NCBI GenBank assembly: GCA_019115125.1
Contig: DXEG01000039.1
Location: forward strand, 1-64,000
Source of the DNA: Candidatus Blautia faecipullorum
Lineage (GTDB): Bacteria > Bacillota > Clostridia > Lachnospirales > Lachnospiraceae
Reading direction: 5' to 3'
DNA: 64,000 bases
Shown here piece by piece: positions 49,281 to 63,012 of the stretch. How positions within the stretch are numbered: the stretch's first letter is position 1; each line of letters begins with the position of its first letter. Both the position numbers and the translations under genes were made by a program. Below the pieces are notes generated by a model that worked only from the letters and a program-made list of their open reading frames with translations, did not search any database and was not told where the DNA came from.

Positions 49281-49309
49281 TTGACAAAGCTTACTGTCCA
49301 CTGTAAAAT
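49281..49309 (+). promoter_or_regulatory. Promoter of the kinase-SIS-phosphorylase-deaminase operon
   Basis: TTGACA (49281-49286), 17-base spacer, TAAAAT (49304-49309); near-consensus sigma-A promoter. Confidence 0.85.
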
Positions 49310-49313
49310 AAAG

Positions 49314-49324
49314 GTACGACGTAC
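49314..49324. promoter_or_regulatory. GTACG-A-CGTAC operator, site 1
   Basis: Perfect 5-1-5 palindrome starting five bases after the -10 box, so it covers the transcription start. One of five copies in the island, attributed to the local GntR regulator. Confidence 0.8.
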
Positions 49325-49357
49325 TACTTTAAACATTATAAAGAAGGAGGCTACTTT

Positions 49358-50281
49358 ATGGGGGCATCTGTAGATTACTATGTACTCACGCAGTTACTTA
49401 TTGATGATATTCATCTCCCGTCAGGGGAACAACACAAAAACCAGCTTGGCGGTGGTATTTATGCTGCAGCCGGTATGCGTATCTGGTCTGAGCATGTAGG
49501 CTTTTGCTGCGCTCCAGGTCCGGATTTTGAAGGGAATTATGACCATTGGTTTTTAGACAACAAAGTTGAAATATCCGGCGGACGAAGAACAAAAAACTGT
49601 ACTCACGCCATAATCAACTATTTTCCAGACGGAGAGCGGGAAGAAATACTGTTGCCCGGCTGTGCGACGCACCATGAATCCCAGCCTCTGGTATCGGAGA
49701 TTCCCTTCGAGTATAAAAACTGTAAAGGAATGTATTTTTTTAAAGACTGCGAGGAAGAATTCTGGAATCAACTGATTCCTTATCTGAACCAGAGTTCTTC
49801 TGTTTCATGCTGGGAAATACTTGGTTCTGCTGCCGTTCCTCAAAACCGTGATTTTATCGGAGAGGCTTTGCATCATGTGGATCTTTTTTCTTTTAATTTG
49901 ACAGAAGGAAAACGTCTTACTGGAAATAACCGGCCGGACGAAATCGTAAAAGCTCTTATAAAATTAAATGCTAAAAATGTTATTTTAAGAATGGGAGAAA
50001 ACGGTGCTTTGGTTTCTTCCGGAAACGGAATTTATCATATACCTGCAGCAAAAACCACCGTTGTGGATGTCACCGGGGGAGGGAATTCCTCTACCGGAGG
50101 TTTTGTCACAGGTTTTTGTCAATCCGATGGTGATATAGTAAAAGCCGGACTCTGTGCCGCCATCTCAGCATCCTATATTTTACAGCAATACGGAGTACCG
50201 CCTGTTATAACCGAAGATTTAATGAACGATGCGGAACAGAAACTTTTTGAACTCAGGAATATAGTTACCCAAATCAGTTAG
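49358..50281 (+). CDS. PfkB-family sugar kinase-like protein (atypical active site)
   Basis: 307 residues with ribokinase-fold features: NQLGGGIYAAAGMRIW near the start, and DVTGGGNSSTGGFVTGF near residues 242-258. The last is the PfkB signature, but the usual GAGD carries Asn (GGGN) where the catalytic Asp should be, as in MAK32-like relatives. Activity as a sugar kinase is therefore doubtful or altered. GGAGG lies before the ATG. First gene of a four-gene operon with SIS, nucleoside phosphorylase and deaminase genes. Confidence 0.82.
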   Translation: MGASVDYYVLTQLLIDDIHLPSGEQHKNQLGGGIYAAAGMRIWSEHVGFCCAPGPDFEGNYDHWFLDNKVEISGGRRTKNCTHAIINYFPDGEREEILLPGCATHHESQPLVSEIPFEYKNCKGMYFFKDCEEEFWNQLIPYLNQSSSVSCWEILGSAAVPQNRDFIGEALHHVDLFSFNLTEGKRLTGNNRPDEIVKALIKLNAKNVILRMGENGALVSSGNGIYHIPAAKTTVVDVTGGGNSSTGGFVTGFCQSDGDIVKAGLCAAISASYILQQYGVPPVITEDLMNDAEQKLFELRNIVTQIS

Positions 50282-50290
50282 GAGGGGCAT

Positions 50291-51436
50291 ATGAAAAAAA
50301 ATTTATATTTAGAGCATATTGAAAGTATCCCGGAGCTTATTGCTGAAGTCTTTCCTGTTCTTAATAATGAAGCCGCCCGGATTGCGGAAGAAGTGTCAGA
50401 CTGGCCTCTGCAGTCCGTATATCTTTACGGAAGCGGAGATTCGTGGGCTGCCGCATTAGGCGCTACAGGTGCGTTTATGAAATTTTGCGGACTTCCCTCG
50501 TATGCTTTCACCTCCATGCAGGCATCCCGATATGCGCCCGGTTACTGCATGCCCGCGCCTAAATCTGTACTTATAATAGGAATCAGCAGTTCCGGATATA
50601 TGCGCCGGGGAGTGGAAGCCACAATGTCAATGAATCAGGCCGGATATTATCCCATCCTGCTCACATCTAATCCACAAAGTCCCGGAGGACAGGCAGCAGA
50701 TATGATTTTCTATACGCCCGTTCCAAAATTTGATACAACACCAGTACCGGGCGTGCGCAGTTATATGACTGCGCAAATTTCTCTGTACCTTCTGGCTGTG
50801 CATCTTTCTCTCAAAAAAGGAAAAATCAGCCATAAAGAGGCGGACAAAATAATCGAAGAGCTTTCCCATTCCGGAGTTATCCTTTCCGCAGCATTAAGGG
50901 AAAACAGGAGTATTCTCCAGGCATTTGGCAAACTCTGCGCTAAAGAAGAACGGGTGGAATTTCTGGCGGCAGGTCCCTGCCGTGCGTCTGCTGATTTCGG
51001 TATGGCGAAAACACTTGAAGCTACCGGATATACTGCACTGAGTCCGGAGCTGGAGGAATTCGCACATATGAATTTCTTTTCCCTGGATCCACAGCATATC
51101 CCTACCGTTCTTATATGTTCGGAGGATGCCCGCTGCCTTACCAGGTGTCTTGAAATTGAACTGTCCATGAAATACCAGCAGCGCCCTTATATCGTAATCA
51201 CAGACAGTCACAAATTTTCAGCCCGGCCGGACCAAACAGTGTTGATTCCCAGTTCAGTAAATGAGATTTTTTCTCCGATGATCTTCTCCTTCCTGACTGC
51301 CTGCTTAACCGCCTATATGCCTCTGAGAGAAGGCGACACTTATATGCATGGTCACCAGGGACCCTACTTTGAAGGACCGTTTGAAAAAGGGAACGGATTT
51401 CCAACGATTATGAACAGCAAAATTATATTGAAATAA
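50291..51436 (+). CDS. Double SIS-domain protein
   Basis: 381 residues with two sugar-isomerase (SIS) domains: VYLYGSGDSWAAALGATGAF (about 43-62) and ISSSGYMRRGVEA carry the phosphosugar loop, and VEFLAAGPCRASADFGMAKT (about 221-240) opens the second half. Relatives are AgaS, GlmS C-term and FrlB deglycases. It may isomerise, deaminate or deglycate a sugar phosphate. Begins nine bases after the kinase gene. HGHQGPYFEG near the C-terminus is not familiar. Substrate unknown. Confidence 0.82.
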   Translation: MKKNLYLEHIESIPELIAEVFPVLNNEAARIAEEVSDWPLQSVYLYGSGDSWAAALGATGAFMKFCGLPSYAFTSMQASRYAPGYCMPAPKSVLIIGISSSGYMRRGVEATMSMNQAGYYPILLTSNPQSPGGQAADMIFYTPVPKFDTTPVPGVRSYMTAQISLYLLAVHLSLKKGKISHKEADKIIEELSHSGVILSAALRENRSILQAFGKLCAKEERVEFLAAGPCRASADFGMAKTLEATGYTALSPELEEFAHMNFFSLDPQHIPTVLICSEDARCLTRCLEIELSMKYQQRPYIVITDSHKFSARPDQTVLIPSSVNEIFSPMIFSFLTACLTAYMPLREGDTYMHGHQGPYFEGPFEKGNGFPTIMNSKIILK

Positions 51437-51450
51437 AGGAGGTAATTACT

Positions 51451-52341
51451 ATGAACTGCTATGACAAAATCCTTAATGGATACGATTATTCAGACCGTAT
51501 GAAGCCCGGGGGCTTCACCCTGGATGGAAAACCCGCACTTACACAGATCAATCCCGATCTTATAGGGGATTATGTGATACTTGTTGTGCGTGATCCTCTT
51601 CTCGTATATGGCGGAGATCCCGCTGAGGTACTTTCTGAACGCCTTGAGAACAGAGTTCTTGCAGGAAAATCAGGTATGTTCACCACATACAGCGGATATT
51701 ATAAAGGCGCCCATATCAGCATTGTTTCAGGCGGAAGCGGCAGTCCGGAGGCGGAACTGATTCTCGTGGAATTTATGCATTATACAAAAGCCAGCACCTT
51801 TATACGTCTTGGCGGCGCTGCCGGAGTCCACGAGGACGTACATTCAGGCGACTGTGTGATTGCCAGCGGCGTCGTTCGGGATGAAGGAATGAGCCAGGCG
51901 TATATTACACCCAGCTATCCTGCGGCCTGCAGCTATGACCTGGTTGCCGCGCTTGCAAAAGCCGCCGATTCTCTTTCCTATCCTTTTCATATTGGTATAG
52001 GCCGCTCTCAGGACAGTGAACATGTCTCCTGCGGCCGGCCCTCTGTAAATGGTTATTTTCAGCCACGCCACGCAGAAATCATCGATTATTATAACCGCGC
52101 GCGGGTCATGTACTGGGATCGTGAATCTGCCGGAATTGTAACTCTCTGCAATCTTTTCGGCCGCCGAGGCGGAGCCGTTGTTTCTGTCGATAATAATCTG
52201 GTAACCGGAGAGTCTTTCTCCGCAGGAAACGGACAGGATCATGCCATTGACATAGCCTTTGAAGGGCTTGTAAACTTATATAAAATGGATAGCATCTCTA
52301 AAGAAAACGGACAGAGATATTGGGTACCTGATCTTAAATAA
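51451..52341 (+). CDS. Nucleoside phosphorylase (PNP/UDP family)
   Basis: 296 residues. IRLGGAAGVHEDVHSGDCVI (about 114-133) with VVRDEGMSQAYITP matches the PNP/uridine phosphorylase family, and MYWDRESAGIVTLCNLFGRR (about 210-229) fits the E-x-E-type ribose/base-binding helix in altered form. Phosphorolysis of a nucleoside to base and sugar 1-phosphate is the expected reaction. GGAGG precedes the ATG; third gene of the operon. Base specificity cannot be read; the deaminase that follows points to a purine-like base. Confidence 0.86.
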   Translation: MNCYDKILNGYDYSDRMKPGGFTLDGKPALTQINPDLIGDYVILVVRDPLLVYGGDPAEVLSERLENRVLAGKSGMFTTYSGYYKGAHISIVSGGSGSPEAELILVEFMHYTKASTFIRLGGAAGVHEDVHSGDCVIASGVVRDEGMSQAYITPSYPAACSYDLVAALAKAADSLSYPFHIGIGRSQDSEHVSCGRPSVNGYFQPRHAEIIDYYNRARVMYWDRESAGIVTLCNLFGRRGGAVVSVDNNLVTGESFSAGNGQDHAIDIAFEGLVNLYKMDSISKENGQRYWVPDLK

Positions 52342-52367
52342 TACAAAATATATTGGGAGGTAACATA

Positions 52368-53726
52368 ATGAGCAGCTTACTGATTAAAAACATCGACACT
52401 CTGGTCTCATGCGACCGTCGGGATCGTATGTATCATAGTGTTAATTTGTACTGTGTCAACGGAATCATTCAGAATATTGGCAGCGACACACCGGAAGCGG
52501 ACCGCATCATTGACGGAAAAGACATGATCTGTTATCCCGGCCTTGTAAACACACACCATCATTTATATCAGATCTTCTCCAGAAATCTTCCACAGGTACA
52601 AAATCTGGAGCTTTTTGACTGGCTTACAGCATTATATGAGGTCTGGAAACAGTTAAATGAAAACACAATTTACCTGTCCTCTCTTACCGGAATGGGCGAG
52701 CTGATGAAAAATGGCTGCACCACTGTCTTTGATCATCACTATGTCTTTCCTGATCATTCAGGAAATTTACTTGAAGCTCAGTGGCGTGCAGCAAAAAAGC
52801 TTGGTGTGCGTATGCATTTCTCCCGCGGAAGCATGGACCGCTCCAAAAAAGATGGCGGACTTCCACCGGATTCTGTCGTGCAGACTGTAGACGAAATCCT
52901 AAAAGACAGCATGAACCTTATTGAAAAGTATCAGGACAGCTCTTTTCAGTCAATGAACCGAATCGCTCTGGCTCCCTGCTCTCCTTTTTCAGTATCAGAA
53001 GATCTTTTAAGAGAAAGTGCCAAACTGGCCCGGCAGTATCATGTACGGCTTCATACTCATCTGTGCGAAACACTGGATGAGGAAAAATTCACTCTGGAAA
53101 CAACCGGACTGCGGCCTCTCGCCTATATGGAAAAGCTTGGCTGGACTGGTTCTGACGTATGGTATGCTCATGGTATTCACTTTAATGACGACGAGCTGAA
53201 GCTTCTAGCCGAAACACAGACAGGCGTCTGTCATTGTCCGATTTCTAATATGAAGCTTTCCTCAGGCGTCGCAAGAATACCTGAAATGCTGAAGCTTGGG
53301 GTTCCTGTAGGTCTCGGTGTTGACGGAAGCGCAAGCAACGACGGGTCTGATCTTCTGGAGGAAATGAGGGTATGTTATCTTCTTCACAGGCTTCAGTCCA
53401 GTGAGGCCGCTCCCAGCGGATACGATATTTTGAAGATGGCGACATCCGGAAGCGCGCAGCTTCTCGGGCGGGAGCAGGAAATCGGAAGTCTGGAGACCGG
53501 AAAATGTGCGGATTTCTTTATGATAAACAAAAACCGGATCGAACTCGTCGGCGCGTGCCGGGATCCACTTTCTGTGTTATGTACAGTAGGTCTTAAAGGA
53601 GCTGTAGACTATACCGTAGTCAATGGAGTGGTCACTGTCGAAAATGGCCGTCTGTGTGCTATTGACGAGGAAAGACTGAGCAGTGATGCTGAAAAAGAAG
53701 TATCACGATATCTCCAGAATCTATAA
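52368..53726 (+). CDS. Amidohydrolase, 8-oxoguanine deaminase-like
   Basis: 452-residue metal-dependent hydrolase of the TrzA/AtzA-type deaminase group. Metal ligands: NTHHHLYQ (about 61), HTHLCET (about 232), HGIHF (about 272) and GVDGSASNDGSD (about 321). RGSMDRSKKDGGLPPDSVVQ resembles, from memory, the diagnostic segment of Pseudomonas 8-oxoguanine deaminase. Start at 52368 follows GGGAGG; an in-frame TTG upstream is rejected. Expected product would be urate-like or another oxo-heterocycle. Last gene of the operon. Confidence 0.85.
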   Translation: MSSLLIKNIDTLVSCDRRDRMYHSVNLYCVNGIIQNIGSDTPEADRIIDGKDMICYPGLVNTHHHLYQIFSRNLPQVQNLELFDWLTALYEVWKQLNENTIYLSSLTGMGELMKNGCTTVFDHHYVFPDHSGNLLEAQWRAAKKLGVRMHFSRGSMDRSKKDGGLPPDSVVQTVDEILKDSMNLIEKYQDSSFQSMNRIALAPCSPFSVSEDLLRESAKLARQYHVRLHTHLCETLDEEKFTLETTGLRPLAYMEKLGWTGSDVWYAHGIHFNDDELKLLAETQTGVCHCPISNMKLSSGVARIPEMLKLGVPVGLGVDGSASNDGSDLLEEMRVCYLLHRLQSSEAAPSGYDILKMATSGSAQLLGREQEIGSLETGKCADFFMINKNRIELVGACRDPLSVLCTVGLKGAVDYTVVNGVVTVENGRLCAIDEERLSSDAEKEVSRYLQNL

Positions 53727-53759
53727 TTATTTCAGCGGAGATTTTCTCCTGCATAGTAA

Positions 53760-53791
53760 AAGCCGGGAACCTGTTTCAATGTTCCCGGCTT
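53760..53791. terminator. Bidirectional terminator between convergent operons
   Basis: Perfect arms AAGCCGGGAAC and GTTCCCGGCTT with short T-rich tails on both sides, between the deaminase and creatininase genes. Confidence 0.88.
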
Positions 53792-53802
53792 ATTTAGGCT
53801 TT

Positions 53803-54546
53803 TTAGTTCTCCAGTGAATTCAACTGCTCTATGATGCTTCTGCACATAAACTCTGTCAGCTTTTCTCCTTTTTCCGCTGTAGCAAGATGGGCGCCGCCTA
53901 TAATCCCTGAGGGATGAACTTCACTGGTCATCCAGGAATCCTTCCTGAGGGGCAATGGAGCTATTTTTTTATCAAAATACGCTTCCAGCTCTCCCATATC
54001 TACTGTTTGCGGAAATTCATACAGCATCTGCGATGTTTCGTCTTCACCTGCATGTACTTCTTCATCAGGTGATGTCTGCATAACCGTCTCTGCGCAGCGA
54101 TAATAAATGGAATGCATTGTGTCGATCACATAAATATCGATCCCATACCTTCTCTTCCATTCCTGTGCAAATCCATGAAGAAATCCCTTATTTCCGCCAT
54201 GGCTGTTAAGAATGATCAGACGTTTCCACCCATGCTGCTTCAATGAAGATAATATATCTCCCATTAATGAAGCTAACGTTGCAGTTGTAAGTGTAACAGT
54301 CCCACAAAAATCCATATGCTCATGGCTAAGTCCGTAATGGATAGGAGGAAGCGCATAAATTTCCGGAATCACTGCTTTATCTCCCTCAAGCCGGCGCAGT
54401 ATATATTCGATTATAAAATCGTCTGTACCGACAGACATATGCGGCCCATGCTGTTCAATAGCTGCAACAGGAAGCATGGCATATATATTTTCTTTAGATA
54501 ATTCCTGATGATTTTTCCAGCTTAAATTACGATAAGAATGAATCAA
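53803..54546 (-). CDS. Creatininase family amidohydrolase
   Basis: 247 residues. Metal-site motifs AAIEQHGPHMSVGTDD (about 28-43), NSHGGNKGF (about 114-122) and HAGEDETS (about 167-174) are complete. Family members open cyclic amides: creatinine, formamidopyrimidine intermediates (ArfB), dimethylpyrimidine salvage, mycofactocin maturation. The island context suggests a ring-derived amide. Follows the enamidase-like gene by 21 bases in the same operon. Confidence 0.92.
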   Translation of the reverse strand: MIHSYRNLSWKNHQELSKENIYAMLPVAAIEQHGPHMSVGTDDFIIEYILRRLEGDKAVIPEIYALPPIHYGLSHEHMDFCGTVTLTTATLASLMGDILSSLKQHGWKRLIILNSHGGNKGFLHGFAQEWKRRYGIDIYVIDTMHSIYYRCAETVMQTSPDEEVHAGEDETSQMLYEFPQTVDMGELEAYFDKKIAPLPLRKDSWMTSEVHPSGIIGGAHLATAEKGEKLTEFMCRSIIEQLNSLEN

Positions 54547-54567
54547 TGCAATTCCCCCTTTTTGTTT

Positions 54568-55851
54568 TTACATGATTTTGAATCCAGTCTGCGAACTGAG
54601 GCCTTCATAATGTCTTCCTACCTGCGGCGGGAAAAACAGATGCTCGGTAATACCTGTAACAAAATCTGGCATATTTTCAATTTTGCAGGTGCGGGCTGTC
54701 GGCCTGGAATCCTTTCCTCTGTAGGCGATTATTCTTCCATCCACTATTACCAGAGAATTTCCAAACGGATCTCCATGTTCAATCGCCTTCAGCGCGTCAG
54801 TTCCACAGGATCCCGGCGGGTTATCAATAACCTGGAGATCTGCTTCCCTTCCTACTTCTATTTTACCGGTATTCAGACTGTAAAGATCCGCCGTGTTGCC
54901 TGTCGCCATTGCAATACATTTTTCTGCCGGAATATCGTTCAGAGCGGAGGCCTTTACAATGCACCGATTGATCGCCCCTGGCATAGATGCCTGTCCTGTG
55001 GGAGAATCACTACCCATAACCAAACGGTGCAGCTCGCCTTTTTGGTCCATATGTCTCAGCATTTTGTTAAAGTTTACAAAGTTGCCGTTTACTACAAGCT
55101 CCAGCGGAATATCGCAATCATCCATTAATCTCTGAATGTGAGAAAATTCGACACCTGTAGAGCCTCCGTTTGTATGGGCAACCTTATTCGGCTTCAGCTT
55201 CAGAATATTTTCTGAGGTTACCCAGGACGATCCAGGAATAGAAGGCGGCGCAAGATGCACGGAATAGAAAAAGTCATACTTACGCGCCCACTCCAGCATA
55301 GGCTCTACTTCTGCCGGGTCGCATAATCCGCCTCCTCCAATTTCAGCAATCAGCCATACACCGGCATCATGCATTTCCTTAAAATCCTGCTCAGTCAAAC
55401 CATGAACCAGCACAAGCGCGCCTCCATGAAACTTCAGTCCGCCGCCGGGACGAAAACGGTCAAATACTCGTTTGGATAAAATAGCCGCTGCCTTACATCC
55501 AATAGCATCATCATAGAATCGCGGCCATCCCGGCCCCTGCTCCCCCTCTGATACCATAGAAGTCGTTCCGGAATATAATGCGTCAGCATAGCATCCCACA
55601 GCTCCTCTCTGAGGCGCATAATCATCCAGCGTGTTATGAACATGGCAGTCAATAAATCCCGGGCACACAATCTGTCCGTCTACGTCAACTACCATATCAA
55701 TGTCTTCAAAATTCAAGTCCTTCTCATAGCCTATCTCTGCGATCATGCCGTCTCTTACTACAATAGTATCACCAGAAATTATGCCTTTTGTAATATCTCC
55801 GCTGACAATTTTATCAATGTTTTTAAGAACCAGATTGTTACCTTTTACCAT
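54568..55851 (-). CDS. Enamidase-like amidohydrolase
   Basis: 427 residues. Binuclear metal start DCHVHNTLDDYAPQRGAVG (about 69-87), HGGALVLVHGLTEQDF (about 142-157), VMGSDSPTGQASMPGAIN and MATGNTADLYSLNTGKIEVG (about 312-340) closely follow enamidase of nicotinate fermentation in Eubacterium barkeri, which opens 6-oxotetrahydronicotinate to 2-formylglutarate. That pathway's other genes are absent, so a different cyclic enamide is likely. AGGAGG before the ATG; operator and promoter upstream. First gene of the enamidase-creatininase operon. Confidence 0.88.
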   Translation of the reverse strand: MVKGNNLVLKNIDKIVSGDITKGIISGDTIVVRDGMIAEIGYEKDLNFEDIDMVVDVDGQIVCPGFIDCHVHNTLDDYAPQRGAVGCYADALYSGTTSMVSEGEQGPGWPRFYDDAIGCKAAAILSKRVFDRFRPGGGLKFHGGALVLVHGLTEQDFKEMHDAGVWLIAEIGGGGLCDPAEVEPMLEWARKYDFFYSVHLAPPSIPGSSWVTSENILKLKPNKVAHTNGGSTGVEFSHIQRLMDDCDIPLELVVNGNFVNFNKMLRHMDQKGELHRLVMGSDSPTGQASMPGAINRCIVKASALNDIPAEKCIAMATGNTADLYSLNTGKIEVGREADLQVIDNPPGSCGTDALKAIEHGDPFGNSLVIVDGRIIAYRGKDSRPTARTCKIENMPDFVTGITEHLFFPPQVGRHYEGLSSQTGFKIM

Positions 55852-55881
55852 TTTTTACCTCCTGTAATATTATTTTCCGTC

Positions 55882-55892
55882 GTACGTCTTAC
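55882..55892. promoter_or_regulatory. GTACG-A-CGTAC operator, site 2 (one mismatch)
   Basis: Minus-strand GTAAG-A-CGTAC, nine bases beyond the enamidase -10 box and just before its start. Confidence 0.7.
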
Positions 55893-55901
55893 CTATTATG
55901 A

Positions 55902-55930
55902 ATTTTATCACATTTTTACGTGGGATACAA
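55902..55930 (-). promoter_or_regulatory. Promoter of the enamidase-creatininase operon
   Basis: Minus-strand TTGTAT (55925-55930), 17-base spacer, TAAAAT (55902-55907). Confidence 0.7.
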
Positions 55931-55963
55931 GATATATTTTAAATATTCTATAAATATATCATC

Positions 55964-55974
55964 GTACGACGTAC
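55964..55974. promoter_or_regulatory. GTACG-A-CGTAC operator, site 3
   Basis: Perfect palindrome in the divergent region, 87 bases before the GntR start, directly after an AT-rich stretch with TATAAA that could be its -10 box; suggests autoregulation. Confidence 0.75.
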
Positions 55975-56061
55975 TATGTTCATCATTACACTTGCTTTTT
56001 TCTTTTTATCATATTATTATTTATTTAAACACCTAATTTATGGATTCAGGAGATGTAAGTT

Positions 56062-56820
56062 ATGAAAAAATCAAATGCAAAACGAATTTTAAAAAGTACA
56101 ACAAAAAGTCAGCAGGCATATGAATCTTTATACGAAGATGTATCCAATATGGAACCGGGAAAAAATAAATTTCCCTCAGAAGAGGAACTGTCCGACGAAT
56201 TCGGAGTCAGCCGCGCAACTGTCCGGGATGCCCTTGTACGTCTGCGCATGGATCGTATCATCACCTCCCATCAGGGGTTAGGCACCTATGGACATCCTTC
56301 TGTTTTTAAGCTTAAAAATCGTATTGACCAGGACACAGACTTTGGCGTAATGCTGAAAAAACAGTATAATGACGTAAAAATAGAAACAGAGTGGGAAATG
56401 CTGGAGCACGGAAACAATACCTTCCGTGAATTTTTTCAGGATACTCCCGCCTTAATGAGCTGCTGGATATATTCGGCTGATAATCTCAAACGCCTCTATA
56501 CCAGATTCTACATCCCTCAGGATCTTATCACGATACCGCTGGAACCGGATCTGCATATAGAAAGTCTTCCGGAATTCAGCCAGAAATATATGATAAAAAG
56601 CAAAGATGATGAAAGCAATTACATTGACTACTGTTCAATGAAATGTAAAATAAAATTTGATGAAAAAGCCTGCCAGCAGCTTGACATTGCCCCTGGCACT
56701 CCCCTGCTCTGCTTTGATGAAATTATATATAATATCAGCGATCGTGTCGTTGGCGTAGGGGAAGTTTTCGTTCATCCGGAAAATATGGTAATGTCTCTTG
56801 TTGCTCCGTTTAAGCTTTAA
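56062..56820 (+). CDS. GntR-family regulator with UTRA domain
   Basis: 252 residues. N-terminal winged helix: KNKFPSEEELSDEFGVSRAT then VRDALVRLRMDRIITSHQGL (about 33-72), a textbook GntR domain although SQQAYESLYEDV replaces the common Y-x-I start. The rest is a UTRA ligand domain (HutC subfamily, about 100-250). AGGAG precedes the ATG by ten bases. It lies centrally in the island and is the only regulator there, with five palindromic sites nearby; predicted to repress all units until an effector (substrate or intermediate) binds. Confidence 0.92.
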   Translation: MKKSNAKRILKSTTKSQQAYESLYEDVSNMEPGKNKFPSEEELSDEFGVSRATVRDALVRLRMDRIITSHQGLGTYGHPSVFKLKNRIDQDTDFGVMLKKQYNDVKIETEWEMLEHGNNTFREFFQDTPALMSCWIYSADNLKRLYTRFYIPQDLITIPLEPDLHIESLPEFSQKYMIKSKDDESNYIDYCSMKCKIKFDEKACQQLDIAPGTPLLCFDEIIYNISDRVVGVGEVFVHPENMVMSLVAPFKL

Positions 56821-56824
56821 CACA

Positions 56825-56864
56825 GCAGCCGCGGCCTGTAAAAAGACCGCGGCTGCATTTTTTT
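56825..56864 (+). terminator. Terminator of the GntR gene
   Basis: GCAGCCGCGG/CCGCGGCTGC followed by a seven-T run; it overlaps the 3' end of the convergent ABC ATPase gene. Confidence 0.92.
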
Positions 56865-57936
56865 ATAACGCTCTGATATTTTTCCCTGCTTTATCAAAAA
56901 CCACACCATGGTTTATATCCATAGCTATCATCATTTCCTCTCCCGGCTCCAGGCGTATTGTATGTGATACTTTACTGCAGTATTTTTTACCGCTGATCTG
57001 AAAATATATCAGGGTTTCAGAGCCAAGATTTTCCACAAGAGAAGCATTTACCTTTATACAGAAGGCGCCGTCCGCATGTTCAGACAGTTGAATATGTTCT
57101 GGCCGGAGACCAAGCACATACTCCCCTTCGGGCATTTTTTTCATTATATCTGACATACAGGAATCAGGAACAGTGATACCCTCTATGCTGCATCTCCCAT
57201 TTTTCTTTTCAATTTCGAAAAAGTTAATAGAAGGTGTACCCAAAAATCCCGCTACAAACTGATTCGACGGTTTCTCATAGAGCTCCATCGGCGTCCCGAT
57301 CTGCTGGATACATCCGTCGTTAAGTATAGCAATACGATCGCCCAGAGTCATGGCCTCTTCCTGATCATGCGTTACAATAACTGTGGTGATTTTTAATTTG
57401 CGCTGCAGCTCTTTGATTTCTACCCGTACCTGACGGCGGAGCTTCGCATCCAAATTGGACAGTGGTTCGTCCAGAAGCATCAGTTTGGCGCGAATCGCTA
57501 CTACTCTGGCGATTGCCACCCTCTGCTGCTGACCGCCTGATAATTGATTCGGATACCTCTCCGCATAGGTAAGCATATCGACCACTTTCAAGGCTTCCTC
57601 AACCCGGACAGCACGCTCCTGCGGCGGTATTTTTTTCATTTTCAGACCAAACTCAACATTTTGACGAACAGTCATATGAGGGAAAAGGGCATAATTTTGG
57701 AACACAACGCCGATATTTCTTTTATATGCCTCCAGATCCAGAATACTTTCCCCATCAATGCGTACGTCTCCGTCATTAGCCTCTATAAACCCAGCGACTA
57801 TACGCAGGATTGTTGTTTTTCCGGAGCCGCTTGGTCCCAGCAGCGCCACCATTTCACCGTCATTGACTACTATATTGGTATTTTTCAAAACCTGGTTTGT
57901 CTTGTAAGACTTTGATAAATTCGTAATCTCCAGCAC
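56863..57936 (-). CDS. ABC transporter ATP-binding protein (PotA-like)
   Basis: 357-residue ABC ATPase with C-terminal TOBE-type regulatory domain (about 245-357). Walker A LLGPSGSGKTTIL (about 33-45), signature LSGGQQQRVAIARV (about 134), Walker B LMLLDEPLSNLDAKL and VTHDQEEAMTLGDR are complete. Closest to the polyamine/Fe3+/opine importer group. Last gene of the SBP-permease-permease-ATPase operon and 15 bases after the second permease. Confidence 0.92.
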   Translation of the reverse strand: MLEITNLSKSYKTNQVLKNTNIVVNDGEMVALLGPSGSGKTTILRIVAGFIEANDGDVRIDGESILDLEAYKRNIGVVFQNYALFPHMTVRQNVEFGLKMKKIPPQERAVRVEEALKVVDMLTYAERYPNQLSGGQQQRVAIARVVAIRAKLMLLDEPLSNLDAKLRRQVRVEIKELQRKLKITTVIVTHDQEEAMTLGDRIAILNDGCIQQIGTPMELYEKPSNQFVAGFLGTPSINFFEIEKKNGRCSIEGITVPDSCMSDIMKKMPEGEYVLGLRPEHIQLSEHADGAFCIKVNASLVENLGSETLIYFQISGKKYCSKVSHTIRLEPGEEMMIAMDINHGVVFDKAGKNIRAL

Positions 57937-57951
57937 GATTTTTCCTCCATT

Positions 57952-58755
57952 CTAAAAGTATTTTGACCAATGCGCGAACTTCTCCGCAAGCACAGAAACA
58001 ATCAGCACTATGATGATGATAATAGTTGAATAGGCCAAAATCATCGGATTAAGCCCCTCTGTCACCATTGATGAATAAACTCTAACTGGAAACGTAGTTA
58101 AGCTGCTCACACTGATAAACAGTGTTATGATTAATTCCGAGAAAGAAAGCATAAATCCAAACATAGAGGCTACGATAATTCCAGGTGCAATAGATGGAAG
58201 TGTCACATAAAAAAATGCTTTTACAGGCGTCGCTCCAAGACTGTTTGCCGCGTCTACAAGGCCATAGTCAAATTCAGCGAGACATGTACCGACAACTCTG
58301 ATATAATAGGGAGTCGCAACAATCACATGCGCTAAAACCAGAGTCCAGAAATTACCTCTTATTCCTAATTTAGCCAGCCAGAGCATAAGTCCCACTCCAA
58401 GAGCTATCATTGGCAAAAACAACGGCGCCATAAACAATACCTGCATTTTCTTTATTATTTTCCTGCTTCCTCTTGTCAGGGCAAAGCATGCGGGTATACA
58501 GAGAAGGTCCCCCGCAAGCATTGCGCACACGGCAATTTTAAGGCTGGAGGCCAGCGAATTAATATGTTCTCTGTTTTGAAATGCTTCTTTATACCAACGC
58601 AGACTAAAGGAAGTAGGAGGAAATTGAAAATACTCTGTATTACTGACAGATGCACCTACAACAGCAATCATAGGCGATACTATAAAAAGCAGAATTAAGA
58701 TCACAATAATTGAAAAAATAGTTTTTGAAATAAATTTTTTTCTTTTCAATTTCAT
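57952..58755 (-). CDS. ABC transporter permease (PotC-like)
   Basis: 267 residues with about six hydrophobic segments and the EAA loop ANSLGATPVKAFFYVTLPSI. The ATG at 58755 overlaps the stop of the upstream permease as ATGA, so translation is coupled; the in-frame open stretch to 58956 is inside that gene and rejected. GGAGGG directly abuts the ATG, and a TTG two codons in would have better spacing, so exact initiation is uncertain. Confidence 0.87.
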   Translation of the reverse strand: MKLKRKKFISKTIFSIIVILILLFIVSPMIAVVGASVSNTEYFQFPPTSFSLRWYKEAFQNREHINSLASSLKIAVCAMLAGDLLCIPACFALTRGSRKIIKKMQVLFMAPLFLPMIALGVGLMLWLAKLGIRGNFWTLVLAHVIVATPYYIRVVGTCLAEFDYGLVDAANSLGATPVKAFFYVTLPSIAPGIIVASMFGFMLSFSELIITLFISVSSLTTFPVRVYSSMVTEGLNPMILAYSTIIIIIVLIVSVLAEKFAHWSKYF

Positions 58756-59612
58756 CCCTCCTGTCTTTTGGCCGCTTTGCGAGGCGCAATATTGGTTATG
58801 CAAAATACCACCAGAACCAGCGCTATCAAAAGCATGGCGATAGCTGACGCAAACGGCCAGTTGTATACCTGCATTGCCTGTTGGTAAATTGTAGTTCCAA
58901 TTACAGCTACTTTGCCTCTTCCCAGGAGCAGCGGTGTAGTGTAGGAGTTCAGACAACAGCCGAAAACAAGAACAAAGCCTGAGATCACACCGGATTTGCT
59001 TAACGGAAGAGTAATACGCAGGAAGCGCTGAAGACCGTTTGCTCCCAGATTATCCGCAGCCTCCAGAACATTTTCGGGAATTGTCTGTATTGAATTCATA
59101 ACCGGCAGAATCATATAAGGCAGAAATCCCTGCGTTAGCCCGATAATCACTCCTGACGCTGTTCCCAAAAATTCAATAGGTTCCTTAATAATCCCGAGAG
59201 CCAGCAATGCGTTATTAATCGGCCCGTAGCTTGTCAGCATTCCATATAACCCCAGTGTCTGTACCATAACGCCAGCCACCAGCGGAAGGATTACCACAAC
59301 CAGAAGGATGGTTTTTGCATACCCCCTGCATTTAGATATAAAATAAGCCACCGGATATCCCAGAACAGAACATATAACAGCGGTAAGCAGACTTATTCCT
59401 ATTGTGCGTCCGATCACTCTCGGATAAAAGCTGTCTTCAAAAAATTTCGCATAGGAATCTATGGTATATGGCGTTGTCGGAATTACCTGTCCTGATTTAT
59501 AAGACAAAAAACTATAATAGAGCAACACAATAAAGGGAATTATAAAAAGAATAATAAATACTATCGTCAGCGGAATCAGCATAAAATTCGCTTTATTGAC
59601 TGACTTCTTCAC
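58752..59612 (-). CDS. ABC transporter permease (PotB-like)
   Basis: 286 residues, six or so hydrophobic segments; EAA loop AADNLGANGLQRFLRITLPL (about 187-206). The N-terminus FMLIPLTIVFIILFIIPFIV and LLYYSFLSYKSGQ fit PotB/PotH. Forms the membrane channel with the PotC-like partner. Separated from the binding-protein gene by a hairpin that may lower permease expression relative to the binding protein. Confidence 0.9.
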   Translation of the reverse strand: MKKSVNKANFMLIPLTIVFIILFIIPFIVLLYYSFLSYKSGQVIPTTPYTIDSYAKFFEDSFYPRVIGRTIGISLLTAVICSVLGYPVAYFISKCRGYAKTILLVVVILPLVAGVMVQTLGLYGMLTSYGPINNALLALGIIKEPIEFLGTASGVIIGLTQGFLPYMILPVMNSIQTIPENVLEAADNLGANGLQRFLRITLPLSKSGVISGFVLVFGCCLNSYTTPLLLGRGKVAVIGTTIYQQAMQVYNWPFASAIAMLLIALVLVVFCITNIAPRKAAKRQEG

Positions 59613-59643
59613 GTTTTCACCCCCAAAACATAATTATATACAC

Positions 59644-59680
59644 AAAATGGGGATACGGATATGATCCATATCCCCATTTT
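59644..59680 (-). terminator. Intra-operon attenuating hairpin
   Basis: AAAATGGGGATA/TATCCCCATTTT perfect 12-bp stem with inner GGAT/ATCC. Lies between the binding-protein and first permease genes; short U-tract, so partial termination is likely. Confidence 0.7.
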
Positions 59681-59689
59681 GGTCATATG

Positions 59690-60736
59690 TTAATTACCTT
59701 CAATTATTTTATTATACATGTCTGTCCAGTCGCTTTCACGGGTCAGAATATAATCCCAATCCAAAGTAACCAGCTTATCTACCTCGTCCCCGTAAACAAG
59801 CTTCTCCGCAATCTCGTCGTCAACCACTACCTCTTTATTACAAGGTGAGAAATAAATATTTTCCGCATATGCAGTCTGCGTTTCCACACTCAGACATCTG
59901 TTGACAAACTCTTTGGCCAGAGCCTCATGGGCGGTATTTTTTGAAATCACAATCGTATCCTTCGCAAGCACTGATCCCGGATCAGACGGATAGACGAACT
60001 CCACAGGAAAGCCCTGTTCAATATAATCATTACTATAGCTGTTAAACATTACAGCCGCCTTTACAGTGCCCTGCTTCATCTCCAAAAACAGCTCGTCTAA
60101 ATCTGTAAAGAAAAGTGGGAACGGTCCCAGCTCTGCAATTTTGTCAAATACTTCTTCTTCCTGTGTCTCCAGATCCAGATCCCATGCCTGCGCCGTTATA
60201 TCTACAAATGCGTCATCTTCAAAGCTGGGGAATGTAGTAAGAGATACCTTTCCTTTTAAATCTTCCCTCCACAGATCCTTCCAGGACGTAATCGGTTCTG
60301 TAACAAGCTCGTTATTATAGCAGATACCCAGCCCCATAATGGACATCCCATATCCTCCGGTCTGCGCAAAATCGTACAGTGAATCAAAGTTGCTTAACGA
60401 CGTATCCACCTCCTGCGCAACTCCATCGTCAATGGCCTGCTTTGATTCATAAATATTAAGAAACAGTACGTCCATGGATGGATTATCTACTTCTGCATAC
60501 ATTTTAGCCTTACGCTCGCTTGTTCCCCCCAAAACAAGCTCTATATTGCAGCCGTACTCTTCTTCCATCGGATCAACAACACTTTCACGGAGCACTTCTT
60601 CTATTGTCCCGCCCCAAACGCCAACTACAAGAGTTTCATCTTTAAAATCCTTTTCCTCTTCGTCCGCAAAAGCCACGACTGGCATACTACAGGCCATCAC
60701 AGCCGCAAGTAATACACTTAATAACCTTCTCTTCAT
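59690..60736 (-). CDS. ABC transporter substrate-binding protein (PotD-like)
   Basis: 348-residue periplasmic-binding-type protein. Signal segment about 1-25; MAC at residue 16 could serve as a lipobox (VMAC), or cleavage may occur at AFA-DEE. ETLVVGVWGGTIEEVLRESV starts domain I, and MDVLFLNIYESKQAIDDG and GLGICYNNELV are typical of extracellular-solute-binding family 1/8. The usual polyamine Trp/Asp site is not obviously kept, so the ligand probably is not spermidine. First gene of the importer operon. Confidence 0.88.
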   Translation of the reverse strand: MKRRLLSVLLAAVMACSMPVVAFADEEEKDFKDETLVVGVWGGTIEEVLRESVVDPMEEEYGCNIELVLGGTSERKAKMYAEVDNPSMDVLFLNIYESKQAIDDGVAQEVDTSLSNFDSLYDFAQTGGYGMSIMGLGICYNNELVTEPITSWKDLWREDLKGKVSLTTFPSFEDDAFVDITAQAWDLDLETQEEEVFDKIAELGPFPLFFTDLDELFLEMKQGTVKAAVMFNSYSNDYIEQGFPVEFVYPSDPGSVLAKDTIVISKNTAHEALAKEFVNRCLSVETQTAYAENIYFSPCNKEVVVDDEIAEKLVYGDEVDKLVTLDWDYILTRESDWTDMYNKIIEGN

Positions 60737-60832
60737 TTACCGATCCTCCTTGTTCTAAATTTGTTGGAATCATACGCATCAGGATATGACGCATATATTG
60801 TTGAAAATCCGCAATTAAATTTTAGGTAATAG

Positions 60833-60843
60833 GTACGACGTAC
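60833..60843. promoter_or_regulatory. GTACG-A-CGTAC operator, site 4
   Basis: Perfect palindrome 11 bases beyond the -10 box of the importer promoter. Confidence 0.8.
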
Positions 60844-60854
60844 GTCATATACTT

Positions 60855-60883
60855 ATAATAACGTCTAACCCTGTTTTTGTCAA
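60855..60883 (-). promoter_or_regulatory. Promoter of the ABC importer operon
   Basis: Minus-strand TTGACA (60878-60883), 17-base spacer, TATTAT (60855-60860). The rest of the 306-base gap 60737-61042 holds the operator, an AT-rich stretch and the terminator of the next operon; no gene seen. Confidence 0.85.
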
Positions 60884-60987
60884 TAATATAACTTCAATTT
60901 AAAATATTTTTTTAAACTTTCTGGATTTATCAAAAGGATTCGTTAAATAGTCTCTTATTACTTTTTTATGATACTCCCCCTTTTTTG

Positions 60988-61032
60988 CAAAAAACAGAGG
61001 TAAATAATTCCATCCGGAACCATTCGCCTCTG
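60988..61032 (-). terminator. Terminator of the PfkB-cupin operon
   Basis: Minus-strand CAGAGG and CCTCTG close a long imperfect stem with an inner GGTTCC/GGATGG-type pairing, then a run of six T. Confidence 0.75.
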
Positions 61033-61042
61033 CTGCTAATTC

Positions 61043-61516
61043 CTATTCATTTTTTAGAACAATACGCAAACTCCCTCCTTCAATCTGACTGCATATTTCA
61101 TTCCTGCCGGACAGCAGTTCAAAATAGTCGACAGGCCCGGTCACTCCGCGGCAGATATCGTACCATACCCCAGGCTGCAATAGTATAATCTCTCCTGGAT
61201 TCAGGATAAACGCTTCTATTGAATCTATTCCGGGAGACAGACTGTCCTCCCGCCCCGCCACAGTCAGAATCATTCTCTGAGTTCCACAGATAATAAGCTT
61301 CTGTCCATCACTTTTTTTCATTTTATCCAGAATAAAAGGCTGCACAGAATCACAGTGGCATATTCCAATACCCGCGCTTTGATCTATACATATTCCTTCT
61401 GTCATCCAGCATTCCCATCCGGTTCCGCTGAAAGCCTCATAATCTGTCAATTTTATAAATGTACCGTAACGCCCGCAGGCTTCTTTCCGGGCGTCAACTG
61501 CATATATTTCTTTCAT
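61043..61516 (-). CDS. Ureidoglycolate-lyase-like cupin protein, copy 1
   Basis: 157 residues. PFILDKMKKSDGQKLIICGT (about 60-79), RMILTVAG, and SIEAFILNPGEIILLQPGVW (about 99-118) follow the AllA (ureidoglycolate lyase) fold pattern. AllA cleaves ureidoglycolate to glyoxylate and urea in the ureide pathway. It is a divergent paralogue of the next gene, ten bases apart. Actual substrate may be another ureido or carbinolamide acid from the island's ring-opening steps. Confidence 0.7.
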   Translation of the reverse strand: MKEIYAVDARKEACGRYGTFIKLTDYEAFSGTGWECWMTEGICIDQSAGIGICHCDSVQPFILDKMKKSDGQKLIICGTQRMILTVAGREDSLSPGIDSIEAFILNPGEIILLQPGVWYDICRGVTGPVDYFELLSGRNEICSQIEGGSLRIVLKNE

Positions 61517-61525
61517 AACTCCTCC

Positions 61526-62005
61526 TTACAGTTCCACTGATACAGGATCAGGTTTTACAGAGAGCCAGGCTGTTTCACTGGGTTCCCCGTTTGTCAGTGA
61601 CAGAAAATAATACATTGTTTCGCCTCCGGTACTATGGCATGCATCATGCCAGATTCCCGGTTTCAAAACAATCACATCTCCCGGCTGGAGAAGGAATGAT
61701 ACCACATCCTCTGTTCTGGGATTGCCTGACGGATCACTGTCCGCAACACTCAAAATAATTGGCTTATTCCCTACGATCTGCACCTCTTCAGATGACAAAT
61801 GCCTCTCCATACTGTCAATAACAAAGGATTTTTCATTGCTGCACTTTGTAATCCCCAGCTTCAGCGGCCGGGTAATAATATCTGTGGCTGTTTGATAAGC
61901 GTGGTATGACTTACTGCTTATTTCATTATCTTCTTTGATATTGTAATACTCTCCATATGGGCGAAACACTTCTTTTCCAATCCTGCATATACTTCCATTC
62001 TTCAT
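61526..62005 (-). CDS. Ureidoglycolate-lyase-like cupin protein, copy 2
   Basis: 159 residues. SFVIDSMERHLSSEEVQIVG (about 60-79), IILSVADSD and VSFLLQPGDVIVLKPGIWHD (about 101-120) keep the AllA fold order and IDSMERH, better conserved than in copy 1. ACHSTGG follows with a possible metal-ligand His. The two copies may form a hetero-oligomer or act on successive intermediates. Starts two bases after the PfkB kinase stop, so it is tightly coupled. Confidence 0.74.
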   Translation of the reverse strand: MKNGSICRIGKEVFRPYGEYYNIKEDNEISSKSYHAYQTATDIITRPLKLGITKCSNEKSFVIDSMERHLSSEEVQIVGNKPIILSVADSDPSGNPRTEDVVSFLLQPGDVIVLKPGIWHDACHSTGGETMYYFLSLTNGEPSETAWLSVKPDPVSVEL

Positions 62006-62007
62006 GA

Positions 62008-62937
62008 TTATTTACTCCTTTGCCGGCGAAACGCCTCCATATATTGTTTTATTACTTTTTCAGATACAATGCCGGCCCTCGCGCCGAAGGCCGTAACTGC
62101 GTAGGCGCCGGCCGCATTGGCGTATTCTGCTGAATATTCCAGAGATTTTCCTGAAAGCCAACATTCTGTAAAAGAACAGTTAAAGGTATCCCCCGCTCCT
62201 GTCGTATCCAAAACCTGAACCCGATTCCCCGGAAGTCTGACCTCTTTGTCCCGGGTCCGGCAATAGCAGCCTTCTGAACCTAATGTAATAACCACCGCTT
62301 CCGTATGTCCCTGAAACAGCATTTCCATTGCCTCACTGTCACTGCGTTCACATCTGAACTTTTTCCATCCTTCCTCATTAAAAAAGATCAGCTTTGCATA
62401 CGAAAATGTTTTGTCATCCCAACTGTCAAAGGTCGATGTCTCGGCATCTATTACCAATGGCACACCTGTTTCCGCCAGTTCTTCCGCCAGTTTCTCCCAT
62501 CTCTCCAGCCGGTGAAATTCCATTACCGAGGTATAAACACATTTTGCCTCCAGCAGCAGTTCATGAAGCTGTGAGTTTACTTTATATTGTATATGATCCA
62601 TGTTGACCACAAAAATGCTTCTCTCTTTTGGCGTAGATATAATCATACATTTGGGATCCGCCAGGGAATCATCTTTTATCACGTAAGACAGATCCAACTG
62701 CCATCGTTCCAGATCCTTTTTTATAATTTGGCTGATACTCCCTGAATTTAGTGCTGTGACAAGATATGTTTTCTCTCCCATTCCTGCAAATACACAGGCC
62801 GCATTTGGAATCATTCCCCCTACACGATTCTCTTTCCATTCAACATTGCATTTTTCACCTTCAGGGATCCAGGCCTCTGCAGTATAGTATTCATCGATAC
62901 AGGCAACACCTATTGCTACAATATGCTTTCCATTCAT
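62008..62937 (-). CDS. PfkB-family carbohydrate kinase (ribokinase-like)
   Basis: 309 residues from the ATG at 62937 (GGAGGAGGG upstream); 25 further in-frame codons cross the operator and are rejected. VGGMIPNAACVFAGMG (about 40-55) and the catalytic LDTTGAGDTFNCSF (about 244-257) are intact, in contrast with the first PfkB gene of the island. Expected to phosphorylate a sugar or nucleoside. First gene of the kinase-cupin-cupin operon. Confidence 0.9.
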   Translation of the reverse strand: MNGKHIVAIGVACIDEYYTAEAWIPEGEKCNVEWKENRVGGMIPNAACVFAGMGEKTYLVTALNSGSISQIIKKDLERWQLDLSYVIKDDSLADPKCMIISTPKERSIFVVNMDHIQYKVNSQLHELLLEAKCVYTSVMEFHRLERWEKLAEELAETGVPLVIDAETSTFDSWDDKTFSYAKLIFFNEEGWKKFRCERSDSEAMEMLFQGHTEAVVITLGSEGCYCRTRDKEVRLPGNRVQVLDTTGAGDTFNCSFTECWLSGKSLEYSAEYANAAGAYAVTAFGARAGIVSEKVIKQYMEAFRRQRSK

Positions 62938-62960
62938 ATGGCCCTCCTCCATCTTTATAC

Positions 62961-62971
62961 GTACGACATAC
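62961..62971. promoter_or_regulatory. GTACG-A-CGTAC operator, site 5 (one mismatch)
   Basis: GTACG-A-CATAC, 12 bases beyond the -10 box of the kinase-cupin operon. Confidence 0.72.
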
Positions 62972-62983
62972 GACATTGACTTA

Positions 62984-63012
62984 ATTTTAAAATATTTTTT
63001 ACAATTTGTCAA
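62984..63012 (-). promoter_or_regulatory. Promoter of the kinase-cupin operon
   Basis: Minus-strand TTGACA (63007-63012), 17-base spacer, TAAAAT (62984-62989). Confidence 0.85.

What the first reader, a model, noticed from the sequence alone, without database searches (positions are those of the whole stretch)
49281..63012. Five copies of one palindrome define a GntR regulon covering a 14-kb catabolic island
GTACG-A-CGTAC occurs at 49314, 55964 and 60833 exactly, and with one mismatch at 55882 and 62961. Four of them lie 4-12 bases beyond the -10 box of a promoter with a 17-base spacer, and the remaining one is ahead of the gntR gene. Every transcription unit in the island has one. Sites of type GT-(N)-AC fit the HutC branch of GntR regulators, and the only regulator in the island is a GntR/UTRA protein. 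Together this predicts a single, self-controlled regulon.
Basis: partly seen in the sequence, partly recalled or inferred. Interest (0 to 1): 0.85.

Follow-up and report, generated by a model that had tools for sequence, protein, structure and literature searches.

The report
Conserved GntR operator marks catabolic island
A short DNA switch sequence sits at the start of every gene group in a 14-kb breakdown island of a gut-type anaerobe, and the same switch marks related islands in other bacteria, so one repressor probably controls what looks like an uncharacterised nucleoside-breakdown pathway.

Summary
In detail: all five sites are where stated, and each of the five transcription units has one. 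In the 3.5-Mb genome the exact 11-mer GTACG(A/T)CGTAC occurs three times, all in the island. Sister genome G460 holds the whole island in the same order, with sites at four promoters. In 64 genomes of the genus a strict 14-mer pattern hits 17 times: 3 here, 4 in G460, one in each of 10 others. De novo search on 20 upstream regions of relatives, window left out, recovers it (391.5 against 221-235 shuffled).

Corrections: conservation runs over 14 bp, GTWMGACGTWMKAC (two abutting GTN3AC heptamers), beyond the 11-bp palindrome. A site of gntR's own is seen only in the window, so self-control is weakly supported. The binding-protein promoter has a second site-like sequence.

Enzyme families (8-oxoguanine deaminase, enamidase-like, creatininase-like, phosphorylase-like, two PfkB kinases, a GlmS-type SIS protein) and nucleoside- or ribose-type transporters in two relatives suggest an N-riboside pathway. 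The substrate is inferred and binding is untested.

The parts
49314..49327 (+). operator GTACGACGTACTAC, 4 nt past the -10 of the PfkB1-SIS-phosphorylase-deaminase operon
   Evidence: site ahead of the orthologous gene in G460 (L038:11756), L046:18781, L049:15489, L063:16583
49281..49309 (+). promoter TTGACA-17-TAAAAT
49358..50281 (+). PfkB-family kinase 1
   Evidence: PF00294 1.4e-18
50291..51436 (+). SIS protein of the GlmS isomerase / fructosamine-deglycase type
   Evidence: PF01380; family profile hits GlmS chains at 2e-20 and 3eua, named a putative deglycase, at 8e-12
51451..52341 (+). nucleoside phosphorylase-like protein
   Evidence: PF01048 8.1e-21; TIGR01718 129 bits, below its cut-off of 280
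52353..53726 (+). 8-oxoguanine deaminase-family amidohydrolase
   Evidence: NF006055 562 bits, cut-off 532; PDB 3hpa and 7ww2
53803..54546 (-). creatininase-like amidohydrolase
   Evidence: PF02633 7.9e-61
54568..55851 (-). enamidase-like amidohydrolase (AmH2)
   Evidence: PDB 2vun enamidase E 2.1e-93
55879..55892 (-). operator GTAAGACGTACGAC of the AmH2-creatininase operon, 9 nt past the -10
55902..55930 (-). promoter TTGTAT-17-TAAAAT of the AmH2 operon
   Evidence: coordinates counted from its output
55964..55977 (+). operator GTACGACGTACTAT, 98 bp ahead of gntR
   Evidence: no counterpart of its own in the 9 relatives examined; best promoter match nearby is weak
56062..56820 (+). GntR-family regulator, probably HutC type
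   Evidence: PF00392 1.4e-12; UTRA 0.0025, below cut-off; nearest solved DNA-binding domain is YvoA/NagR
56863..57936 (-). ABC transporter ATPase (PotA/UgpC type)
57952..58767 (-). ABC permease
   Evidence: PF00528
58752..59612 (-). ABC permease
   Evidence: PF00528
59690..60736 (-). ABC solute-binding protein
   Evidence: PF13416 2.5e-25
60833..60846 (+). operator GTACGACGTACGTC (written on + strand) at the solute-binding-protein promoter, 8 nt past the -10
   Evidence: site at the same gene in G460 (L039:3547) and L046:16356
60855..60883 (-). promoter TTGACA-17-TATTAT
60856..60869 (-). possible second operator GTTAGACGTTATTA in the spacer and -10 of the same promoter
   Evidence: one mismatch to GTWMGACRTWMKWY; no counterpart seen in G460
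61043..61516 (-). paralogue of the 61526-62005 protein; no Pfam hit of its own
61526..62005 (-). protein with a weak ureidoglycolate-lyase match
   Evidence: PF04115 3.9e-5, 23.8 bits, cut-off 23
62008..62937 (-). PfkB-family (ribokinase-like) kinase 2
   Evidence: PF00294 1.7e-41
62961..62974 (+). operator GTACGACATACGAC (written on + strand), 9 nt past the -10 of kinase 2
   Evidence: site at the same gene in G460 (L039:5619) and L046:18393
62984..63012 (-). promoter TTGACA-17-TAAAAT

Best explanation
The island is a local catabolic regulon controlled by the GntR-family, probably HutC-type, protein at 56062-56820. It most likely works as a repressor: a dimer binds the 14-bp operator GTWMGACGTWMKAC placed, at the four enzyme and transporter promoters, 4-9 bases past the -10 box, over the transcription start, and keeps RNA polymerase off; a pathway compound (a phosphorylated sugar or a nucleoside-derived intermediate is my guess) releases it. 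Shown by computation: the sites, their promoter geometry, their near-restriction to the island, and their conservation together with the regulator across genera. Inferred: that this protein binds them, that it represses, and what the inducer is. The pathway most likely imports an N-riboside, splits it by phosphorolysis, and deaminates and opens the base ring.
For: Whole island conserved in G460 (14 of 14 island proteins, same order), with sites at four promoters. A matrix from the five window sites alone gives 14 places of at least 14 bits at operon starts: G460 4, L046 3, L047 1, L049 3, L052 1, L063 2; 387,720 control bases have none above 13.2. De novo recovery without the window: 391.5 against 221-235 in 10 shuffled sets. 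Strict pattern in 64 genomes of the genus: 3 in G000, 4 in G460, one in each of 10 of the other 62; the regulator at E up to 1e-20 is in 3 of 64, G000, G460 and G020. Of 9 other loci with a full-length regulator, 6 have sites by the window-only matrix and L055 is a seventh only by the motif learned from relatives; of 5 AmH2 loci with no regulator in the fetched stretch none has one. 15 of 20 sites of relatives start 0-17 bases past the best-scoring -10. No G at -5 in any site, fitting loss of NagR's Arg38.
Against: No binding or expression data. G020 has the regulator (42%) but only a weak site variant (9.5 bits) and no strict-pattern hit; L058 (31%) has no match by matrix. The window matrix also gives 15.0 at 19287, inside a gene, and 14.9 at L049:19362, inside the deaminase gene. 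In L047, L049 and L063 the AmH2 site overlaps the promoter boxes or spacer as scored, and in L047 (second site) and L052 it lies 23 and 40 bases past the -10, so geometry is not uniform; no shuffled control was run for the promoter scoring. The left half-site has no G at -4 (0 of 20) although the Arg48 equivalent is kept. Activation at some promoters cannot be excluded. The substrate is inferred from families only.
Confidence: 0.86

Rival explanations
1. The sites belong to a different, unlinked regulator that happens to control the same operons; the GntR protein is only a regulated gene or acts elsewhere.
For: No binding data. One window site lies ahead of gntR itself. gntR stands several kb from the sites in L049 and L063. 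G020 has the regulator but only a weak site variant.
Against: Sites go with gntR across loci: 6 of 9 with it by the window-only matrix (7 with the learned motif), 0 of 5 without it. It is the only one of the 14 island proteins with a DNA-binding domain by Pfam at E up to 0.001. Absence of G at -5 goes with loss of the Arg38 equivalent.
Confidence: 0.08
2. The operator is read as a direct repeat: each GTN3AC heptamer is a core of its own (FadR-like spacing) and two or more subunits or dimers bind in tandem, rather than one dimer on a 14-bp palindrome.
For: Position i equals position i+7 in 29 of 35 comparisons in the window and 101 of 140 in relatives, against 19 of 35 and 76 of 140 for the 14-bp palindrome. 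L046 has an exact tandem, GTTATAC GTTATAC; G460 has GTTATAC GTTAGAC GTACTAC, L046 GTACGAC ATACTAC ATACTAC.
Against: Dimer cores 7 bp apart would probably clash (my reasoning). The outer GT/AC pairs fit the 14-bp NagR frame. Flanking heptamers are mostly not conserved.
Confidence: 0.35
3. The sites are chance or compositional and no regulon exists.
For: At one mismatch the 11-mer is not enriched genome-wide: 59 per strand against 94 for the reversed control.
Against: Clustering, promoter position, conservation and de novo recovery.
Confidence: 0.01

Closest known systems
NagR/YvoA (Bacillus subtilis), GntR/HutC subfamily
   Same: Nearest solved DNA-binding domain by profile (1.6e-10; a FadR-family chain, 8pqm, and DasR follow); 14-bp operator frame with GT and AC at the ends (GTGGTCTAGACCAC, PMC4333415, passages only); Arg48 and wing Gly69 equivalents invariant in 10 of 10; local catabolic repressor logic.
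   Different: Arg38 equivalent is Glu/Asp in 10 of 10 and G at -5 is absent; G at -4 is in one half only (14 of 20) and never in the other; the centre is ACGT, not CTAG; UTRA is below cut-off in the window protein.
FadR subfamily of GntR
   Same: GTN3AC spacing within each heptamer equals the five-nucleotide gap given for FadR half-sites.
   Different: Two heptamers abut; the C-terminal part matches UTRA in 5 of 10 members.
8-oxoguanine deaminase (PRK08203 family)
   Same: The deaminase scores above the curated cut-off.
   Different: Its neighbours (enamidase-like, creatininase-like, SIS, PfkB, phosphorylase-like) form a set I found no name for; the substrate is unknown.
Enamidase of Eubacterium barkeri nicotinate fermentation (2vun; organism and pathway recalled)
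   Same: Aligned over 385 residues, E 2.1e-93.
   Different: No other nicotinate-pathway gene was recognised in the island.

Membership tests
GntR family | N-terminal GntR winged-helix domain | tested here: met
   PF00392 47.5 bits, cut-off 27; 10 of 10 family members
GntR/HutC subfamily | C-terminal UTRA domain | tested here: inconclusive
   window protein 18.1 bits, cut-off 23.8; 5 of 10 members match at E up to 1, best 1.8e-8.
GntR/HutC subfamily | 14-bp operator with specific half-sites at -7 to -4 and +4 to +7 (NagR) | tested here: inconclusive
   G-7 T-6 in 17 and 20 of 20 sites, A+6 C+7 in 15 and 19 of 20; but no G at -5 in either half and G at -4 in one half only, compared with PMC4333415
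GntR/HutC subfamily | base contacts through Arg38, Arg48 and wing Gly69 (NagR) | tested here: inconclusive
   Arg48 and Gly69 equivalents invariant in 10 of 10; Arg38 equivalent acidic in 10 of 10
self-controlled local regulon | regulator gene carries the operator | tested here: inconclusive
   window yes; G460 and L046 share only the divergent site; 7 of 9 relatives none within 260 bp
local regulon | sites confined to the island | tested here: met
   strict pattern: 3 of 3 hits in G000 and 4 of 4 in G460 are island sites; looser pattern: 5 of 6 and 4 of 7 exact hits
8-oxoguanine deaminase | curated equivalog score | tested here: met
   NF006055 562.2 against 532
8-oxoguanine deaminase | activity on 8-oxoguanine | not testable with these tools
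   needs enzyme assay
uridine phosphorylase | curated equivalog score | tested here: not met
   TIGR01718 129.2 against 280.3; superfamily member only
mycofactocin MftE / creatininase | curated equivalog scores | tested here: not met
   109 against 172; 97 against 235

The most novel reading that the evidence does not exclude
The island encodes an uncharacterised anaerobic pathway that imports a modified purine-like N-riboside, frees the base, deaminates it and opens its rings with three amidohydrolases. Its core enamidase-like enzyme is 77-90% identical to relatives in Blautia, Oscillospiraceae, Anaerotruncus, spirochaete and Leptolinea genomes, and here it is governed by a dedicated GntR regulator that reads a tandem GTN3AC operator. 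Oxidised or ring-opened guanine nucleosides are one candidate substrate.
Probability: 0.4. Interest if true: 0.65.

Novelty: new member of a known kind. Interest (0 to 1): 0.47.

Why it matters
A regulator, its operator and its complete target set can be predicted here from sequence alone and checked with one gel shift. The regulon also delimits a pathway made of enzymes whose families are known but whose substrate is not. A version of it is present in a named strain, Anaerotruncus colihominis DSM 17241 (L063), so growth tests could identify a nutrient that gut anaerobes may take from nucleic-acid breakdown.

Tried and rejected
Chance sites: rejected. The 11-bp palindrome as the whole site: set aside because conserved columns lie outside it. 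The counts are not one-sided: as palindromes the 11-mer holds in 23 of 25 pairs in the window and 64 of 100 in relatives, the 14-mer in 19 of 35 and 76 of 140, so by pair counting alone the 11-mer does better; the 14-bp extent rests on columns 13 and 14, on the heptamer repeat (29 of 35; 101 of 140) and on the NagR frame. The window hit at 19287 lies inside a coding gene and was treated as chance. Regulator search in 391 genomes of the class found only the own genome at 1e-15, so the enamidase-like protein was used as the bait instead. Literature: in the listings I saw no paper on this gene set, and in that no GntR tandem-heptamer operator; I judged by titles and abstract starts only. The library is open-licence only, so this does not show absence in print. 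Of papers, I saw passages of PMC4333415 and PMC2018728, nothing more.

Choices that could flatter the result: the 20 regions were drawn, from 8 genomes in which sites or a regulator had been seen; orthologue loci L048, L051, L053, L054, L056, L057 and L058 were not among them. The matrix was trained on sites it then scored, and gives 8 control hits of 11.5 or more in 387,720 bases. Shuffling was within 20-base blocks, 10 sets. L051 has a 48-residue piece of a regulator at its contig end and no site of 11.5 bits or more; it is in neither the 9 nor the 5.
Full report
OBSERVATION. At up to two mismatches the window has 18 matches against a mean of 4.67 in 100 shuffles. In the genome (3,503,412 bases) the exact 11-mer with any centre base occurs five times; the three with centre A/T are the island sites. 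At one mismatch the 11-mer is not enriched (59 per strand; reversed control 94). Each of the five transcription units has a site.

GENES. Pfam and NCBIfam: PfkB kinase, SIS protein, phosphorylase-superfamily protein and 8-oxoguanine-deaminase-family protein on the + strand; creatininase-like and enamidase-like amidohydrolases on the - strand (enamidase by PDB match); GntR on the + strand; an ABC transporter (ATPase, two permeases, binding protein) on the - strand; two related small proteins, one with a weak ureidoglycolate-lyase match, and a ribokinase-like PfkB on the - strand. The GntR protein is the only one of the 14 with a DNA-binding domain at E up to 0.001. The deaminase passes its curated cut-off (562 against 532); the phosphorylase and creatininase do not pass theirs.

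CONSERVATION. Within the genus (64 genomes held) the regulator is found in three: G000, G460 and G020. G460, a Blautia MAG by the record title of what I take to be the same contig (L059), holds all 14 island proteins in the same order with GTTAGACGTACTAC ahead of PfkB1, the same 14-mer between AmH2 and gntR, GTACGACGTACGTC ahead of the binding protein, and GTACGACGTACTAC ahead of PfkB2. A scan of the species-genome collection with the AmH2 alignment returned 31 loci, 15 of them at 77-90% identity, including Anaerotruncus colihominis DSM 17241. With a matrix made from the five window sites only, places of 14 bits or more lie at operon starts in G460 (4), L046 (3), L047 (1), L049 (3), L052 (1) and L063 (2); the L047 one lies in the 5' part of an open frame whose true start I did not settle. 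One more place, L049:19362, lies inside the deaminase gene. 387,720 control bases have no hit above 13.2. L055 has a variant right behind a -10 that the window-only matrix does not pick up at 9 bits. G020 has only a variant of 9.5 bits, also behind a -10. L058 has no match by matrix; its operon start reads GTCGACG GTATACG GTTCGAC by eye. In all, of 9 loci besides the window with a full-length regulator, 6 have sites by the window-only matrix and 7 by the learned motif; of 5 AmH2 loci without a regulator in the fetched stretch (L048, L053, L054, L056, L057) none has. Several of those stretches are short, so this contrast is weaker than it looks.

DE NOVO AND SPECIFICITY. Unsupervised search on 20 upstream regions of relatives, window excluded, gives GTAAGACGTACTAC (or its complement) with a total of 391.5 against 221-235 for ten shuffled sets. 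The regions were chosen, as told under tried and rejected. The strict pattern GTWMGACGTWMKWC hits 17 times in 64 genomes: three in G000, four in G460, and one in each of ten others. Allowing GTWMGACRTWMKWY, exact hits are 6 in G000 (5 in the island) and 7 in G460 (4 in the island). The bare form GTN3ACGTN3AC occurs 15 times in 216,001 bases of window and island loci and 4 times in 387,720 control bases.

OPERATOR. In the 20 sites of relatives, T2, C7 and T9 are invariant, G5, G8 and C14 hold in 19, A6 in 18, G1 in 17. So two abutting GTN3AC heptamers describe the site best by counting, and the 11-mer is a part of it. The HutC member NagR binds a 14-bp palindrome with half-sites at -7 to -4 and +4 to +7, through wing Gly69 (G-7), Arg38 (G-5) and Arg48 (G-4); FadR half-sites are five nucleotides apart, NagR's six (PMC4333415, passages only). 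Predicted HutC operators in PMC2018728 (passages) include TGGTCTATACCA, that is GTN4AC, not GTN3AC. Aligned to NagR, the Arg48 and Gly69 equivalents are invariant in 10 of 10 family members and the Arg38 equivalent is Glu or Asp in 10 of 10. In the 14-bp frame no half-site has G at -5 (0 of 40 in relatives; from the columns), as expected if Arg38 is lost; one half has G at -4 in 14 of 20, the other in none, which the kept Arg48 does not explain. I lean to one dimer in the NagR frame; tandem binding stays open.

PROMOTER GEOMETRY. In the window the 14-mers start 4, 9, 8 and 9 bases past the -10 of the PfkB1, AmH2, binding-protein and PfkB2 promoters; the best promoter match near the gntR site is weak and ends 20 bases before it. 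In relatives 15 of 20 start 0-17 bases past the best-scoring -10 (no shuffled control). That position suits repression by blocking polymerase. The five exceptions are the AmH2 sites of L047, L049 and L063, which overlap boxes or spacer as scored, the second L047 site (23) and L052 (40). The binding-protein promoter of the window has a second site-like sequence, GTTAGACGTTATTA, within spacer and -10.

AUTOREGULATION. The window has a site 98 bp ahead of gntR. G460 and L046 have only the site shared with the divergent AmH2 gene; seven other loci have none within 260 bp. Self-control is therefore seen in this genome at most.

PATHWAY. Of the relatives' transporters I scanned two: a Bmp/PnrA-type binding protein (L058) and a ribose-type one (L063); L049 has an ADP-ribosylglycohydrolase-family gene beside kinase 2. 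In the stretch held, G020 has no match to the kinases, SIS or phosphorylase but has GFO/IDH/MocA and xylose-isomerase-like proteins. Among the 15 AmH2 loci a deaminase-like gene is found in 12 and a creatininase-like gene in 13, some stretches being cut short. I infer an N-riboside whose base is deaminated and opened. Which base is unknown; 8-oxoguanine is suggested only by the deaminase family.

VERDICT. A conserved local regulon that the GntR protein most likely governs; the operator and the autoregulation claim need the corrections above. It is a new member of a known kind of system, wrapped round a pathway that I did not find described in the searches named.

Noticed in passing
   Followed up: partly
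L041:10187-10954 and L055:13169-13810: A stand-alone protein lies in both catabolic loci; the L041 one matches the MgsA C-terminal domain, the L055 one looks alike at its start but was not scanned.
   Followed up: no
L060, L061, L062: Hadesarchaea genomes carry a 50-53% homologue of the enamidase-like protein; in L061 and L062 several deaminase-like matches (25-35%) lie nearby.
   Followed up: no
L041:1596-13919: A sister species keeps deaminase, enamidase-like, creatininase-like and regulator genes but seems to handle the sugar with GFO/IDH/MocA and xylose-isomerase-like proteins.
   Followed up: partly
window 61043-62005: Two paralogous small proteins with a weak ureidoglycolate-lyase match travel with kinase 2 in G460, L046, L049 and L063; function unknown.
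   Followed up: no
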